Shown here: positions 56,040 to 61,341 of the stretch, in pieces
How the letters are laid out: the number at the start of each line of letters is the position of its first letter
Numbering within the stretch: the first letter of the stretch is position 1
Assembly: GCA_030648295.1 (NCBI GenBank)
Contig: JAUSID010000072.1
Location: forward strand, 1 to 64,000
Length of the DNA: 64,000 nucleotides
Reading direction: 5' to 3'
Origin: Opitutaceae bacterium
GTDB taxonomy: Bacteria > Verrucomicrobiota > Verrucomicrobiia > Opitutales > Opitutaceae
Notes under the pieces: generated by a model
The model's input: the letters and a program-made list of their open reading frames with translations, nothing else
Databases searched by the model: none
Told to the model about the DNA's origin: nothing
Translations under genes and position numbers: made by a program

Positions 56040-56165
56040 CGCGCTTGAATCGTTCAGTCGAAAAAAGCGGCTTGGGGAGCCTCTCGACCAGCTCGAGGCC
56101 TCTCGGTCGATGGCGCGATTGGCCGTGAGCCTGTCGAACCGGCAAGGCGCTCCATCCGGACTGAG
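56040..56165. repeat. TCGACCAGCTCGAGGC/GTGAGCCTGTCGAACC repeat copies downstream of lutC
   Basis: CTCTCGACCAGCTCGAGGCC followed by GGCCGTGAGCCTGTCGAACC. The same pair recurs near 57550-57610 and partly at 47.66 kb. No gene is seen in this 234-bp gap. Confidence 0.65.
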
Positions 56166-56253: not shown

Positions 56254-56772
56254 TCAGTTCGTGGGCGGCAACGGACGGAATTCGTCGAAGGTCAGCGCGC
56301 CGTCACCGTTGCCATCGAGCGCCAGGAGATGCGCGGCTGCTTCCGTGATTTCGGAGCCGGAAAGCGCACCATCCCTGCTCACGTCGAGGGCGAGCATGAT
56401 GGGATCGAGCGGCCGCGGACGAGCACCCTCCGGGCGTGCCGGTGCGCCGGACGGAGGCGTCGGCGCATTGGCGGGCCGGGCTGGCCTCAATTCGCCAACG
56501 GAGACGCTGCCGTCGCCATTGGTGTCGAGCGCGCGGATGGCAGCGGGCGCGTTGGCGAGTTCGCCCACCGAAATGACGTGATCCTGATCGACGTCGAGTA
56601 CGCGAATGATCGGACCCGGCCCACGGCCGTGTCCATCCGGGCCGCCCGGACCACCGTGGCCACGGCGGCCGCCGGAGCCGCCGGAGCCGCCAGCGGGCGG
56701 GGTTTGGGCCGAGAGGGCAAGGCCGACGCCGAAGCTGGCGGCGACCACAAGGAGACGAGTGAGGTTTTTCAT
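56254..56772 (-). CDS. Secreted EF-hand protein
   Basis: A 172-residue exported protein: signal peptide (MKNLTRLLVVAASFGVGLALSA), a glycine-rich linker, and four EF-hand-like loops, DVDQDHVISVGE, DTNGDGSVSVGE, DVSRDGALSGSE and DGNGDGALTFDE. The second and fourth have ideal calcium ligands; the first and third are imperfect. Calcium sensing or buffering in the periplasm is likely. ATG at 56772 gives the signal peptide. Its upstream region shares a 41-bp motif layout with the ECF sigma gene. Confidence 0.88.
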   Translation of the reverse strand: MKNLTRLLVVAASFGVGLALSAQTPPAGGSGGSGGRRGHGGPGGPDGHGRGPGPIIRVLDVDQDHVISVGELANAPAAIRALDTNGDGSVSVGELRPARPANAPTPPSGAPARPEGARPRPLDPIMLALDVSRDGALSGSEITEAAAHLLALDGNGDGALTFDEFRPLPPTN

Positions 56773-56868
56773 GTTGGCTTTCGTTAATCCGCCCGAGCGC
56801 CGCGGCCGGTGAGGCGCGGAAGAACGATCGAGCGTTACGCCATGATTAGACGCCGCCAATGTTCGGCT

Positions 56869-56909
56869 TTCATGTCGCGTAACGGGAAAATTGTTACGCG
56901 GGGGTAAAG
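56869..56909 (-). promoter_or_regulatory. Composite promoter-like motif of the EF-hand gene
   Basis: Plus-strand order TTCATGT, 9 nt, GGAAAATTGTTA, 7 nt, GTAAAG. Same blocks and spacings at 58557-58597. The near end is 96 bp from the EF-hand start codon. It can be read as a promoter for an alternative sigma factor or as a binding site for the response regulator (TGTTA/GTAAA direct repeat, 11-bp period). Confidence 0.6.
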
Positions 56910-56967
56910 CCATCGCGGCCGTTTCTTAATCCTCGGGTCGGGCGGAGAAAACGTCCTGCGATCGAAT

Positions 56968-56984
56968 GTCACGTATTACGTGAC
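56968..56984. promoter_or_regulatory. GTCACGTA-T-TACGTGAC palindrome
   Basis: A perfect 8-bp inverted repeat with a 1-nt centre in the gene-free region between the EF-hand and sigma genes. It resembles an operator. No gene starts next to it except the EF-hand gene on the minus strand, about 196 bp away. Confidence 0.35.
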
Positions 56985-57811
56985 GTTCACTTTCCGGAAT
57001 CTTCCTGCCGATCTGGCATCTGGCGAAGCGGCTTTTCCGCAGTGGCTGCGGCATCCTGCCGCAGGGACATTCGAGCGAACTTTCGATCCAGAGAACGTCA
57101 CCTATTTCGAGACGTTCAGGAATGAGGAATCGCGAGGGGAGGCGCGTCGCCCGCCGTCGTTGCGAAGACACTCCGTCGCTTCGCGCCACCCCCGCACGAG
57201 CAGGATCGATTCAGTGGACAACCGCGAATGAACGCGAATGGACGCAAATTCCAAGGGAGCAGGATTGCTCAAGTGGAATCACGGTCACCGTTTGGTTGAT
57301 GGTTTCCATGCTCCCCAAAGACGCCCTCTCCATTCGCGTGAATTGGCGTCTATTCGCGGTTGAGCTCGTGGGAAACAGCGTGCGTCACCTGAGAGCGCGG
57401 GCGCCGGTTAATTGCGGATTTCGGATTTCGGATTCGGCAAACCACGACGAATCGCACGGCGTTGTACCCCCTGGGGGCGCGGACGCCCTCGACCGCAGAG
57501 AAATTCCGATCGCCAATCCTACCGAATCTGCGGCTGCCCCGCGACAGGCCTCTCGACGGGCTCGAGGCCTTTCAGTCGAAATCGCAGATGGCCGTGAGCT
57601 TGTCGAATCGGCTCGGGGCCCTGAGACCTGCCGAATGGGGAAGCCGTAGCCACTCGATCTTTGCGGGCCAGAGGCCCGCGCTCCCAGGAAACCGTTGTTT
57701 CTTCCCGTCCGGAGCAAAACGCGTTTTGCGGTTGGGGCTGAATTGTTCCCGCTCGAGAGGGGATCCACCGGCGAACCAAACCTGCGAACTCGCCCAGATG
57801 TTACCGCGGAT
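56985..57811. other. Gene-poor stretch between the EF-hand and sigma factor genes
   Basis: About 830 bp with no convincing gene. It holds an inverted pair of CGCGAATGAACGCGAATG-type repeats (57221 and 57336), a TCTCGACGGGCTCGAGGCC unit near 57550 and GCGGGCCAGAGGCCCGC with GCTCCCAGG near 57663. One open frame (56980-57231) lacks the strong GC third-position bias of the neighbouring genes and is not believed. Confidence 0.6.
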
Positions 57812-58510
57812 TCACGCCGCCAGCCGCGGGCGAGGGGCGCCCCAGCCGTTTCCGTCCGGCAGCCGGGTGGCGGTCGACTGGCCGACGGAAGCGCGCAGAA
57901 ACGGACGCGTCCGATGGAGCCGCGCCTTCACCGCCTCGGTGGTGAGCCCCTCGCGGGCGGCGATGGTGCGGTAGCTATGACCCTCCACAAAAAGCCGGAT
58001 GAGGTTGCGATCCTTCGGCGAGAGCTGGCGCAGCGCGGCATCGAGCGCTTCCATGATTTCGCCGACGGCGCCATGATTCCGCGTATCCGGAAGGTCGACG
58101 AGATCGTCGTCGCCGCCGATGGCGACGGGCCGCCGGCTGCGCCGGCGGACGAAATCGAGCGCAGCATTGCGCGAAAGTCGGAACAGCCACGACTCGAAGG
58201 CGACGGCGTCGCGGAGCCGGCCGAGCCGCCGCAGCATCTTGATGAATACCGTCTGCACGACATCCTCCACCGCCTCAGGCTGACGGATGATCAGCCGGAT
58301 GTGACCGGCGAGCCGGCGGCGATAGCGAACGACGAGTTCCGATTGCGCGGCCATGTCACCGGCTTGCGCGCGCATCACCACTGCGCACAACTCGTCGCGT
58401 TCCTTTTGTTTTTCGGCGTCGGTGGGTGACGTCGCCAGGAACTGCGAGGGTGATTCTTTGGCAGGTTCGGTCGCAACCGTGTAGAGGTGGTCCGGATTCG
58501 GTAGGATCAT
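57812..58510 (-). CDS. ECF-type RNA polymerase sigma factor
   Basis: A 232-residue sigma factor of the sigma-70 family, ECF group. Region 2 (QSELVVRYRRRLAGHIRLII, VEDVVQTVFIKMLRRL then SWLFRLSRNAALDFVRRR) binds the -10 element. Region 4 (QLSPKDRNLIRLFVEGHSYR then GLTTEAVKARLHR) binds the -35 element. ATG at 58510 has a short leader. No anti-sigma gene follows directly. It shares its upstream motif with the EF-hand gene, suggesting a common regulon. Lies on the same strand as the histidine kinase 173 bp upstream. Confidence 0.9.
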   Translation of the reverse strand: MILPNPDHLYTVATEPAKESPSQFLATSPTDAEKQKERDELCAVVMRAQAGDMAAQSELVVRYRRRLAGHIRLIIRQPEAVEDVVQTVFIKMLRRLGRLRDAVAFESWLFRLSRNAALDFVRRRSRRPVAIGGDDDLVDLPDTRNHGAVGEIMEALDAALRQLSPKDRNLIRLFVEGHSYRTIAAREGLTTEAVKARLHRTRPFLRASVGQSTATRLPDGNGWGAPRPRLAA

Positions 58511-58556
58511 TGTGGGAGTCGGCTTCGCACCCAGTGAGCCGGATCCGTGTTAGCGG

Positions 58557-58597
58557 TTCATGTTGCCGGGCCGGAAAATTGTTAGGGTTGTGTAAAG
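58557..58597 (-). promoter_or_regulatory. Composite promoter-like motif of the ECF sigma gene
   Basis: Plus-strand order TTCATGT, 9 nt, GGAAAATTGTTA, 7 nt, GTAAAG, identical in blocks and spacing to 56869-56909. 46 bp upstream of the sigma start codon. Fits autoregulation by the ECF sigma factor or control by the nearby response regulator. Confidence 0.65.
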
Positions 58598-58682: not shown

Positions 58683-60302
58683 TCACGCGGCATTCAGCCG
58701 GATCTCGGCGCGAAAACCTCTCGGTGAGCGGTTGGCAAAGTGAACTTCACCGCCACACGCGGTGACGCTGCTGCGCACGATGGACAGCCCGAGGCCGACG
58801 CCGCCGGTCTCCCGTGTGCGCGCCGACTCCGGGCGATAGAATGGATCGCCGAGCCGGTCGAGCGCATCGGCCGGCACGCCCAGTCCATCATCATCGACCG
58901 CGATGACCACGAGCGTTTTTTCACGCCGCGCACTCACCGTAATCGGGCCGGATCCGCCGTAGCGGAGCGCATTTCGCACGAGGTTCGCGAGCGCGCGCTT
59001 CAGCAGATCGGCGTCCGCAAGCACACGCAGTTCGGCGGCGATTTCCACCAGCACCCTTGCCGCCGCTTCCTCGCGATCCAGTACTTCCCGCACGAGTGGC
59101 GCAATTTCCACCGGCTCGAGCGTGATGTCGCGATGCAGGCCGGCCTTGGTGAAAGCGAGCAGTTCGTTCACGAGCGCACTCATGTGCTGCACTTCCTCCC
59201 GCACATCGGCGACGACGGGGGCGAGCGCCGGAGGTGCGTGCTCCGAAAGGATGCCGGTTGCCATTTGCATGCGCGCCAGCGGCGAACAAAGTTCGTGCGC
59301 CACATCGCCGAGAAACCGCTTCTGGCCGCTCATCTGCGCATCGAGTCGCGCCGCCATGCGGTTGACCGATTCGCCCAGCCGTCCAATCTCATCCCGGCGC
59401 CGCGCGGGTACGCGCGTTTCGAACCTGCCCTCGGCAATCTGTTCGGTGGCCGCCGTGAGCTGGCTCAAGGAATGCGTGATGCCGCGCATCAGCGGCAGCC
59501 AGAACAGGACGGAGAGTGCCAGGACGGCCGTCCCGGCCAGCAGCCAGGTCTCGAGGTTGAGGAAGCGCAACACGCCCCAGAACGAGCCGATTTGAGCGAT
59601 CAACATCGGCGGTCCGCCGCCAAAACCGCCCGGCCCCGGGCGGCCGCGCTCGATGGCGCCGAAGGGAACGCGAAAGCCGACCCAGTACCTTGCCGGCGAT
59701 TCCGTGCGCACGACAAGGCGGTTGCGCTCGCGTTCGCGCGCGGGATCCGGCGGTGCTCCGCGGCTTGCTTCGGGCAACTCGCGTCGCGTCTTCAGCACCA
59801 CCTCCCGCGGAGGGTCCTTCGCCTCGCCGCGCGCCGGTTCGGCGGATGGGTCGCGCGCGCTGCCGCTGGCATCCGCGCCATCGCGGCGTGGTGGCCGCCG
59901 CCCATCAACGGAATACCGGCGGAAATCATCCGGCGGTGTGCCGAATTCGCCGCGCGGACCGCGGGGCCAGAATTCCAGCCGGCTGCTGACCGCGGCGGGC
60001 AGCTCGATCTTTTCGCCCGCGACCTGCGTACCATCGGGCCGGAAGATGAAAAATCTGGCGCGATATGCGGCGCCGAAGCGCGCGAGCACCGCATGGCGAT
60101 TCTCACCCGTCGCCGCCGCCGTCTCACCGGCGATCACGTTGGCAGTCCCCTGCGCGCGGTCACCGGCGACACCGGCGACCAGGGCGCCCCAGCCGAGTCC
60201 GCCCTGCACGACAAAAAAGCCGAGGCCCAGCGCCGCGAGCAAGACGAGGTTGAGCAGCAACCAAAGCGAGACCTTCAGCGAGAGCGGGTAGGTGATCTTC
60301 AT
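58683..60302 (-). CDS. Sensor histidine kinase
   Basis: A 539-residue inner-membrane kinase: two transmembrane helices (near residues 10-35 and 255-285), a periplasmic domain with a long Pro/Arg-rich insert, a HAMP domain, a DHp domain with phosphoacceptor His336 (GDVAHELCSPLARM), and a HATPase domain (NLVRNALRYG, DDDGLGVP, GVGLGLSIVRS). ATG at 60302 has GGAGG 10 nt upstream. It should phosphorylate the response regulator encoded upstream at 60.6-61.3 kb. The 313-bp gap between them contains a TGTTA/GTAAA site (60355-60371), so the kinase can have its own promoter. CpxA-like in layout. Confidence 0.9.
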   Translation of the reverse strand: MKITYPLSLKVSLWLLLNLVLLAALGLGFFVVQGGLGWGALVAGVAGDRAQGTANVIAGETAAATGENRHAVLARFGAAYRARFFIFRPDGTQVAGEKIELPAAVSSRLEFWPRGPRGEFGTPPDDFRRYSVDGRRPPRRDGADASGSARDPSAEPARGEAKDPPREVVLKTRRELPEASRGAPPDPARERERNRLVVRTESPARYWVGFRVPFGAIERGRPGPGGFGGGPPMLIAQIGSFWGVLRFLNLETWLLAGTAVLALSVLFWLPLMRGITHSLSQLTAATEQIAEGRFETRVPARRRDEIGRLGESVNRMAARLDAQMSGQKRFLGDVAHELCSPLARMQMATGILSEHAPPALAPVVADVREEVQHMSALVNELLAFTKAGLHRDITLEPVEIAPLVREVLDREEAAARVLVEIAAELRVLADADLLKRALANLVRNALRYGGSGPITVSARREKTLVVIAVDDDGLGVPADALDRLGDPFYRPESARTRETGGVGLGLSIVRSSVTACGGEVHFANRSPRGFRAEIRLNAA

Positions 60303-60354
60303 GCGGTTCGGACCTCCGCGAGGATACGCTTCCGGCAGCAAAAAATCCCCATTG

Positions 60355-60371
60355 TTTACGCCGGCTTAACA
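60355..60371 (-). promoter_or_regulatory. TGTTAA-N5-CGTAAA site upstream of the histidine kinase
   Basis: Minus-strand direct repeat TGTTAA, 5 nt, CGTAAA, with the 11-bp period seen in sites for OmpR-type regulators. The core half-sites match those in the EF-hand and sigma upstream regions, though without the flanking blocks and in opposite orientation to the genes. 53 bp upstream of the kinase start. The rest of the 313-bp gap 60303-60615 shows nothing recognised. Confidence 0.45.
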
Positions 60372-60615
60372 AACAAGTTGCCGGCCGCACGCCGGAGCAG
60401 CGAGCGGGGAGTGAAGAATTTCAGCGTCATTACCTCGGCGGCCATGAAAATCGATCGATCCGACTCTGGGTTTCTGAACGAGCGAAATTGTAATCTGCGG
60501 CTGGAAGCCGCAGCCACTGCGGGGAAGGATTTTTGACCACGGATCACACGGATGGGTACGGATGGAGAAAGTCACTCGTGCGCGGATTCGTGAAAACTTT
60601 GGTATCCTTCCCTGC

Positions 60616-61341
60616 CTACTCGGGATTGACCATCATGTAGCCGGCGGAACGGACGGTGCGGATGAAACGCGGTTCCTTGGGATCGTCGCCGAGCTTTTTG
60701 CGCAGCGACGACACGTGCACGTCAATCGAGCGGTCGAACACGTCGTAGTTTCGATCGCGACATTCATCGAGCAGCGCCTCCCGCGTCTTCACGCGGCCGC
60801 GCGCTTTCGCGAGGCTCGCGAGCAAATCGAATTCAACCGGCGTCAGGACAAGCGGGACCGTCCCCAGCACGGCGCTGCGGGCGTCCAGGTTGATCCGCAG
60901 CGGCCCAACGAGCAGTTCAGCGGGCGGCGCCATGTCGGGCGACGACGGGGTCATCGCGCTGCGACGCAGCACGGCCCGCAGCCGGGCGAGCAGTTCGCGG
61001 GTCGAAAACGTTTTCGGCAGGTAGTCGTCCGCTCCGACCTCCAGCCCCACGATGCGATCGGTCTCGTCGCCGCGGGCGGTGAGCATGAGCACGGGGACGT
61101 TGCTGCGCGCGCGAATCTTTTTCAGCACTTCGAAGCCGTCCATACCCGGCAGCATCACGTCGAGAATCACGGCGTGCCACGCCGCATCGCCCGCGGTTGC
61201 GCGTTCGACTCCTTCCGGGCCCGTGTGCACGGCGGTGACGTCGAACCCCAGCGGCGCGAGATAGGTGGCCACGAGCCGGCAGAGCTTGCGATCGTCATCG
61301 ATCATCAACAGCCGCGTCCGTCCGTCTGTGCTCTCAGCCAT
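60616..61341 (-). CDS. OmpR-family response regulator
   Basis: A 241-residue regulator. Receiver domain with phosphoacceptor Asp61 (VILDVMLPGMDGF), acidic pocket IDDD, Thr in LTARG and Lys110 (YLPKTF), followed by a winged-helix DNA-binding domain (LTPVEFDLLASL and the SIDVHVSSLRKKLGDD recognition helix). Pairs with the histidine kinase downstream. DNA targets of this family are direct repeats with an 11-bp period. ATG at 61341. Confidence 0.92.
   Translation of the reverse strand: MAESTDGRTRLLMIDDDRKLCRLVATYLAPLGFDVTAVHTGPEGVERATAGDAAWHAVILDVMLPGMDGFEVLKKIRARSNVPVLMLTARGDETDRIVGLEVGADDYLPKTFSTRELLARLRAVLRRSAMTPSSPDMAPPAELLVGPLRINLDARSAVLGTVPLVLTPVEFDLLASLAKARGRVKTREALLDECRDRNYDVFDRSIDVHVSSLRKKLGDDPKEPRFIRTVRSAGYMMVNPE

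What the first reader, a model, noticed from the sequence alone, without database searches (positions are those of the whole stretch)
56869..58597. Identical composite promoter motif upstream of an ECF sigma gene and an EF-hand gene
Seen: TTCATGT, 9 nt, GGAAAATTGTTA, 7 nt, GTAAAG occurs at 56869-56909 and 58557-58597, with the blocks and both spacings identical and different bases between. One copy is upstream of the ECF sigma gene (46 bp), the other upstream of the secreted EF-hand gene (96 bp), both on the same strand as the genes. Established: ECF sigma factors commonly control their own promoter. Inference: this is the sigma factor's own promoter class, with the calcium-binding protein as a target. 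Alternatively the TGTTA/GTAAA direct repeat with 11-bp period is a site for the neighbouring OmpR-type regulator.
Basis: partly seen in the sequence, partly recalled or inferred. Interest (0 to 1): 0.72.

Follow-up and report, generated by a model that had tools for sequence, protein, structure and literature searches.

The report
Two-component operator before sigma and EF-hand
The shared DNA motif is most likely the landing site of the neighbouring two-component response regulator, which controls a secreted EF-hand protein gene and, in this genus, an ECF sigma factor gene as well; it is probably not the sigma factor's own promoter.

Summary
In detail: two identical spaced motifs, none expected by chance, and no other match within 3 mismatches in the 9.1-Mb genome. 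Both genes lie on the minus strand, so the motif reads CTTTAC-N7-TAACAATTTTCC-N9-ACATGAA in gene direction. It is the upstream part of a ~66-bp promoter: a direct repeat (CTTWACA, 11-bp period), then CAYAY, TAACA and a -10-like block.

Across the family (Opitutaceae by relatives' names) the repeat marks the locus of the adjacent CpxA/OmpR-like two-component system (TCS): before regulator and kinase genes (reversed), before EF-hand genes, and before MbnP and YHYH genes in relatives. Of 31 genomes with the kinase but no close sigma homologue, 29 keep it. Of 24 sigma loci without this kinase nearby, 16 lack it; 14 of those share another motif and 12 lie beside a LytTR-type TCS.

Best reading: the regulator binds here, autoregulates its TCS and drives EF-hand and sigma genes, as CseBC drives sigE. 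Not shown: binding, direction, signal, sigma targets.

The parts
56885..56909 (-). Operator (direct repeat, 11-bp period) at the EF-hand promoter: CTTTACCCCCGCGTAACAATTTTCC
   Evidence: Exact match; PWM score 36.6; with downstream blocks R1 46.2 bits, genome E 3.6e-11
56869..56875 (-).
   Evidence: Conserved at 9-10 bp from the operator across relatives
56845..56864 (-). TAACA-like block (GAACA, 56860-56864) and -10-like TCTAAT (56845-56850) of the EF-hand promoter
   Evidence: TAACA-like block in 98 of 99 sites with an assigned gene downstream and 3 of 26 without; the assignment as -10 is inference
56254..56772 (-). EF-hand gene: signal-peptide-like start, Gly/Pro-rich stretch, 4 EF-hand motifs
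   Evidence: Pfam EF-hand_1 E 1.2e-13; 4 motifs by regex; secretion read from the sequence, not predicted by a tool
58573..58597 (-). Operator at the sigma promoter: CTTTACACAACCCTAACAATTTTCC
   Evidence: Exact match; PWM score 42.4; R1 45.5 bits, genome E 5.7e-11
58557..58563 (-). ACATGAA block of the sigma promoter
58533..58552 (-). TAACA block (58548-58552) and weak -10-like CTCACT (58533-58538) of the sigma promoter
   Evidence: only 6 of 19 sigma promoters fit the -10-like pattern
57812..58510 (-). ECF sigma factor gene (232 aa), no anti-sigma gene recognised beside it
   Evidence: Sigma70_r2 E 8.7e-14 and Sigma70_r4_2 E 1.2e-10; minus-strand ORFs of the gap listed
60355..60373 (+). Third operator, before the kinase gene, reversed relative to it: TTTACGCCGGCTTAACAAA
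   Evidence: R1 13.1 bits: E 0.80 genome-wide, 0.0057 in the window; same place, orientation and AAAATCCC-N4 lead as the kinase-side sites of relatives
58683..60302 (-). Sensor histidine kinase, CpxA-like (HAMP, HisKA, HATPase_c)
   Evidence: Pfam; best NCBIfam model CpxA, 167.6 bits, below its cut-off of 486
60616..61341 (-). OmpR/PhoB-type response regulator, proposed to bind the operators
   Evidence: Response_reg and Trans_reg_C above cut-off; DRSIDVH of the recognition-helix stretch in all 49 regulator ORFs compared

Best explanation
The motif is the operator plus promoter module of the neighbouring CpxA/OmpR-like two-component system. A dimer of the phosphorylated response regulator binds the two CTTWACA half-sites (11-bp period). 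The module downstream (CAYAY, TAACA, -10-like) lets RNA polymerase start transcription of the EF-hand gene and the ECF sigma gene. A reversed operator before the kinase gene (and, in relatives, before the regulator gene) gives autoregulation. The sigma factor has no recognised anti-sigma gene, so it is probably gated by transcription: signal -> kinase -> regulator -> sigma gene -> sigma regulon. Shown by computation: the sites, their conservation, their confinement to this locus in this genome as far as searched, and their independence of the sigma gene. Inferred: binding by this regulator, activation rather than repression, use of the main sigma factor. Unknown: the signal and the sigma targets.
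For: (1) This genome has three model hits in 9.1 Mb, all within ~3.5 kb beside the TCS (the third weak). (2) A PWM of the 25-bp operator scores >13 at 146 places in 110 fetched loci against 3 in the same loci reversed (24 of its 26 training sites lie in these loci, and the loci were partly chosen by the motif). (3) 62 of 76 genomes with a kinase ORF in a fetched locus or the window have at least one operator >=14 there. (4) 29 of 31 kinase genomes without a sigma homologue keep it. (5) 29 sites are kinase-side and 26 regulator-side, reversed to those genes. (6) The TAACA-like block follows the operator in 98 of 99 sites with a sigma, EF-hand, YHYH or MbnP gene downstream and in 3 of 26 regulator/kinase-side sites where no YHYH/MbnP was found downstream; composition shuffles give 2.3 of 64. 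(7) DRSIDVH of the recognition helix is the same in 49 of 49 regulator ORFs. (8) On the other strand the half-sites read GTTAA-N6-GTAAA, close to the CpxR consensus GTAAA(N)4-8GTAAA (passage of PMC3158067).
Against: 14 of 76 kinase genomes show no operator >=14 at the locus; for some the contig ends nearby, and one (G058) has a model hit just past the kinase. G023 has the sigma next to the kinase but no operator before it. The sigma promoters fit a -10-like pattern in only 6 of 19 cases. The third site in the window is weak (E 0.80 genome-wide). A few relatives have sites elsewhere (G022:C18, G141:C11, G127:C97; L057, L061, L063-L065, L068). The genomes are likely to hold many other OmpR-type regulators (not counted), so the assignment rests on linkage and co-conservation. 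I saw no binding or expression data.
Confidence: 0.86

Rival explanations
1. One reading: the motif is the ECF sigma factor's own promoter (autoregulation) and the EF-hand gene is a sigma target.
For: The motif stands before both genes at a promoter-like distance. Eight sigma loci without the kinase on the fetched stretch still carry it. ECF factors often autoregulate (general knowledge).
Against: Kept in 29 of 31 kinase genomes without a close sigma homologue, although those genomes may hold other ECF factors; also before regulator, kinase, YHYH and MbnP genes; 16 close sigma homologues lack it and 14 of those carry another motif. Within the genus, sigma and EF-hand promoters share the upstream blocks but their consensus differs in the -10 region.
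Confidence: 0.05
2. Composite promoter: the response regulator binds the CTTWACA repeats, but the RNA polymerase that starts transcription carries this sigma factor in the genus that has it.
For: In this genus many EF-hand promoters carry a GCGTCTAAT-like block, which resembles ECF -10 elements (recalled).
Against: GCGTCT blocks also occur at operator-linked sites in genomes without a sigma match (G233, G234, G265, G266). The consensus of the sigma promoters lacks that block.
Confidence: 0.07
3. The repeat is bound by some other OmpR/PhoB-type regulator of the genome, such as a PhoB.
For: The two-unit architecture is like PhoB/PhoP boxes (recalled).
Against: In this genome the sites found lie only at this TCS locus, and they flank this regulator and kinase across genera.
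Confidence: 0.05

Closest known systems
CseBC - SigE of Streptomyces coelicolor (ECF39)
   Same: An ECF sigma gene without anti-sigma, controlled at transcription by a TCS encoded with it; the sigE promoter is not a SigE target (passages of PMC6767563; PMC8999054).
   Different: There sigE heads the operon sigE-cseA-cseB-cseC and its promoter seems the sole CseB target (same passages); here sigma and EF-hand genes have separate promoters with the same operator and the TCS carries operators of its own. ECF39 membership was not tested.
CpxAR envelope-stress system
   Same: Kinase best matches the CpxA model; the half-site pair resembles the CpxR box; an extracytoplasmic protein gene beside the TCS as target (cf. 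cpxP, recalled).
   Different: Kinase and regulator fall below CpxA/CpxR equivalog cut-offs; the repeat has an 11-bp period with one half-site GTTAA; the target is an EF-hand protein.
Bacillus PhoP / E. coli PhoB boxes (recalled, not tested)
   Same: Tandem TTWACA-like half-sites with 11-bp period upstream of a -10 without a normal -35.
   Different: Different regulator subfamily and targets; the downstream blocks are not in strict 11-bp register.
AlgR/LytTR sites
   Same: The motif before the other group of sigma homologues holds TTCGTC, as in AlgR's CCGTTCGTC (passage of PMC4064291), and 12 of 16 of those sigma loci hold a LytTR-type TCS.
   Different: Belongs to the relatives' wiring, not to the window.

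Membership tests
OmpR/PhoB-type response regulator | Receiver domain plus winged-helix Trans_reg_C | tested here: met
   PF00072 86.7 bits and PF00486 87.2 bits, above cut-offs
CpxAR | Scores above the CpxR and CpxA equivalog cut-offs | tested here: not met
   CpxR 183.1 of 341; CpxA 167.6 of 486
CpxAR | GTAAA(N)4-8GTAAA operator | tested here: inconclusive
   Found GTTAA-N6-GTAAA: one half-site deviates
ECF sigma factor | Regions 2 and 4 only | tested here: met
   PF04542, PF08281 above cut-off; of the 25 NCBIfam models shown (69 matched) only the ECF superfamily model TIGR02937 is above its cut-off
TCS-gated ECF sigma (CseBC-SigE type) | TCS encoded next to the sigma gene | tested here: met
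TCS-gated ECF sigma (CseBC-SigE type) | No anti-sigma gene | tested here: inconclusive
   The kinase lies upstream and only ORFs without a recognisable product in the gap downstream; judged by reading, no anti-sigma model was run, and a remote gene cannot be excluded
TCS-gated ECF sigma (CseBC-SigE type) | Regulator binds the sigma promoter | not testable with these tools
   Comparative support only
TCS-gated ECF sigma (CseBC-SigE type) | Membership of group ECF39 | not tested
   No ECF group models at hand
Autoregulated ECF promoter | Motif occurs with the sigma and not without it | tested here: not met
   29 of 31 sigma-less kinase genomes keep it; 17 of 37 sigma loci lack it
Lanmodulin / XopAW | Scores above family cut-off | tested here: not met
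   LanM 22.5 of 135 bits; XopAW 49.3 of 120

The most novel reading that the evidence does not exclude
One ECF sigma lineage of Opitutaceae has been wired to two unrelated two-component systems: in most of this genus to a CpxA/OmpR-type system through the CTTWACA operator, in other genera and some genomes of this genus to a LytTR-type system through TTCRC-N16-TTCGTCCCA. The logic is parallel in both: sigma gene, small secreted-protein gene and TCS lie together, and the sigma and secreted-protein genes share an operator. The sigma would then be a portable output module gated by transcription. The older regulon of the OmpR-type system is a set of extracytoplasmic candidate metal or redox proteins (EF-hand, YHYH, MbnP with di-haem peroxidase), with the sigma a late recruit.
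Probability: 0.6. Interest if true: 0.6.

Novelty: new variant of a known kind. Interest (0 to 1): 0.5.

Why it matters
It gives a defined operator and a small regulon for a TCS of Verrucomicrobia that I found no description of, ties EF-hand, YHYH and MbnP/peroxidase genes into one candidate regulon, and offers a natural case of an ECF sigma changing masters, with a clear prediction for each branch. It also corrects a tempting misreading: a motif shared by a sigma gene and a neighbour need not be the sigma's promoter.

Tried and rejected
Rejected: the sigma's own promoter (see rivals). Reading ACATGAA as a -10 with TAACAATTTT as -35: further conserved blocks lie downstream and the TAACA block depends on a gene lying on that side. 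Strict 11-bp register for the downstream blocks: it does not fit (one search shows a 1-bp length variation). YHYH and MbnP in this genome: no match, but the searches rang in no control genome, so absence is not shown. Order-wide scan with model R1: 11 of 273 genomes, with stricter filters that lose weak sites. The shorter LytTR-side pattern with 1 mismatch is unspecific (183 of 252 genomes, control also hit); the longer pattern replaced it, and both were drawn from the loci they describe. The first grouping of regulator-side sites was made by eye after seeing the sequences; one search replaces it with a BLAST-based grouping. Literature: no paper holds YHYH + EF-hand + two-component or MbnP + YHYH; 'YHYH domain' gave two phage papers; searches for Bacillus PhoP boxes and CpxR/RstA boxes gave none; I saw the listings, and passages of the papers cited. 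PMC8103513 and PMC4227749 (passages) added nothing used here. No structure was predicted.

Sites left unexplained: L061 (inside an ORF), L057 and L063/L064 (small or unidentified proteins downstream), L060 (a small ORF without a Pfam match, beside weak kinase and regulator similarity).

Full report
Observation. The two motif copies are real and identical in blocks and spacing. They are the only matches up to 3 mismatches in the genome. Both genes are on the minus strand, so the motif in gene direction is CTTTAC-N7-TAACAATTTTCC-N9-ACATGAA. The order on that strand is response regulator, histidine kinase, ECF sigma, ~1 kb without a recognised gene, EF-hand gene.

Conservation. A spaced pattern search of 252 genomes of the family found it in 28 genomes, with the reversed control at 0 in every row. 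The family name is inferred: of the 16 stronger named relatives of the kinase, 13 are titled Opitutaceae, Opitutae, Opitutia or Opitutus; the others are 'Verrucomicrobia', 'bacterium' and 'Proteobacteria'. I fetched loci around the hits, around kinase orthologues (77 of 252 genomes at E<=1e-60) and around the stronger sigma homologues (90 of 252 genomes match at E<=1e-25; the stronger ones taken). A weight matrix of the 25-bp operator, trained on 26 sites, scores above 13 at 146 places in 110 loci and at 3 places in the same sequences reversed; 24 of the 26 training sites lie in these loci. The loci were partly chosen by the motif, so this is no unbiased genome count. For this genome, (patterns; model R1, 150 of 1484 candidates scored) serve as such.

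Anatomy. With downstream genes assigned by BLAST or EF-hand pattern, the TAACA-like block is present in 63 of 64 sites before sigma/EF-hand genes and in 35 of 35 before YHYH/MbnP genes. It is present in only 3 of 26 regulator- or kinase-side sites where no YHYH/MbnP gene was found downstream (21 further unassigned sites, 19 of them with the block, are left out of this count). So the operator can stand alone and the downstream module comes with a gene to transcribe.

Which factor. The decisive comparison is between the operator and the sigma. Of 76 genomes with a kinase ORF in the fetched loci or the window, 62 have an operator >=14 in the locus (the 77th, G009, had only a fragment that my threshold dropped). 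Of the 31 kinase genomes with no sigma match at E<=1e-25, 29 keep it; one of the two misses, G058, has a model hit just past its kinase. One search scored at most 11 candidates per genome, and these genomes may hold other ECF factors. Of 37 sigma loci (E<=1e-45), 20 carry the operator (one at only 11.4), all in the window's genus: 12 with the kinase on the same stretch and 8 without. Of the 17 without it, 16 have no kinase on the stretch and one (G023) has.

Sigma on another leash. The 17 operator-less sigma genes were aligned upstream, and a motif drawn from that alignment, TTCRCNNC-N13-TTCGTCCCA, is found before the sigma in 14 of the 16 that lie away from the kinase, with up to 2 mismatches; over all loci and the window there are 23 such hits against 4 in the reversed control. 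A longer form appears with at most 1 mismatch in 13 of those 16 genomes, in 3 of 21 genomes whose sigma carries the operator or adjoins the kinase, and in 4 of 31 without sigma. In eight of the 13 there are two such sites, one before the sigma. A LytTR-type kinase or regulator homologue lies on the same stretch in 12 of the 16 loci, in 0 of 20 operator-carrying sigma loci and, for the regulator, in 0 of 74 other loci (Pfam LytTR confirmed in two and the kinase in three). In the four loci examined the second site lies 0.4-0.7 kb upstream of the kinase gene, and in three of them a small ORF with a signal-peptide-like start lies between. The motif contains TTCGTC as in the AlgR site. Whether it is a LytTR operator or that sigma's promoter is not decided here. 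A tree of the 37 sigmas puts operator-carrying and operator-less ones on two sides with one exception (G023), but the separating branch is weak (63/28).

Regulon. In relatives the operator also faces YHYH genes (PF14240) and MbnP genes; a di-haem peroxidase domain follows in two of the five MbnP proteins scanned. MbnP and MbnH are a conserved pair of unclear role in the copper context (passages of PMC3621798). YHYH homologues occur in the fetched loci of 33 genomes and MbnP in 16. The window has a 313-bp gap between regulator and kinase; in relatives 22 kinase-side operators face a YHYH or MbnP gene. The window's operator there remains (60355-60373) though no such gene was found.

Mechanism. 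Most likely the phosphorylated regulator binds the repeat, autoregulates its genes and drives EF-hand and sigma genes. The closest described case is CseBC-SigE, where sigE is transcribed under a TCS, has no anti-sigma, and its promoter is not a SigE target (passages of PMC6767563). Binding, direction and signal are inferred or unknown.

Limits. Genomes are mostly draft assemblies; start codons are predicted; the -10 assignment is by position and resemblance; the regulator's identity rests on linkage, co-conservation and a CpxR-like half-site.

Noticed in passing
L044:3-4310, L104, L118, L122, L126: MbnP genes (with a di-haem peroxidase domain in L044 and L126) and, in L044 and L104, YHYH genes lie divergent from regulator and kinase and carry the same operator, suggesting an extracytoplasmic metal/redox regulon.
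   Followed up: partly
L135:3933 and 7402, L116:3868 and 7517, L094:610 and 4294: A different bipartite motif (TTCRC-N16-TTCGTCCCA-N6-TYGGC) before a sigma homologue and again upstream of a LytTR-type TCS (with a small secreted-protein-like ORF between in L116 and L094): candidate LytTR operator, or that sigma's promoter.
   Followed up: partly
window 60303-60615: 313-bp gap between regulator and kinase where many relatives hold a YHYH gene; the kinase-side operator survives without a divergent gene, as if the gene was lost.
   Followed up: partly
window 56071-56140 and 57545-57615: Two similar ~70-base stretches (GCCTCTCGAC..CTCGAGGCC..GGCCGTGAGC..TGTCGAA) in non-coding DNA, looking like a dispersed repeat (seen by eye).
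   Followed up: no
window 56254-56772: The first two EF-hand loops are only ~11 residues apart and the protein scores weakly to lanmodulin (22.5 of 135 bits), without the proline at loop position 2 (recalled lanmodulin trait).
   Followed up: no
L063:151-191 and L064:4374-4414: An extra operator in two genomes before a gene for a small protein with a signal-peptide-like start and no Pfam match for the piece tested (L064): a possible further target.
   Followed up: no
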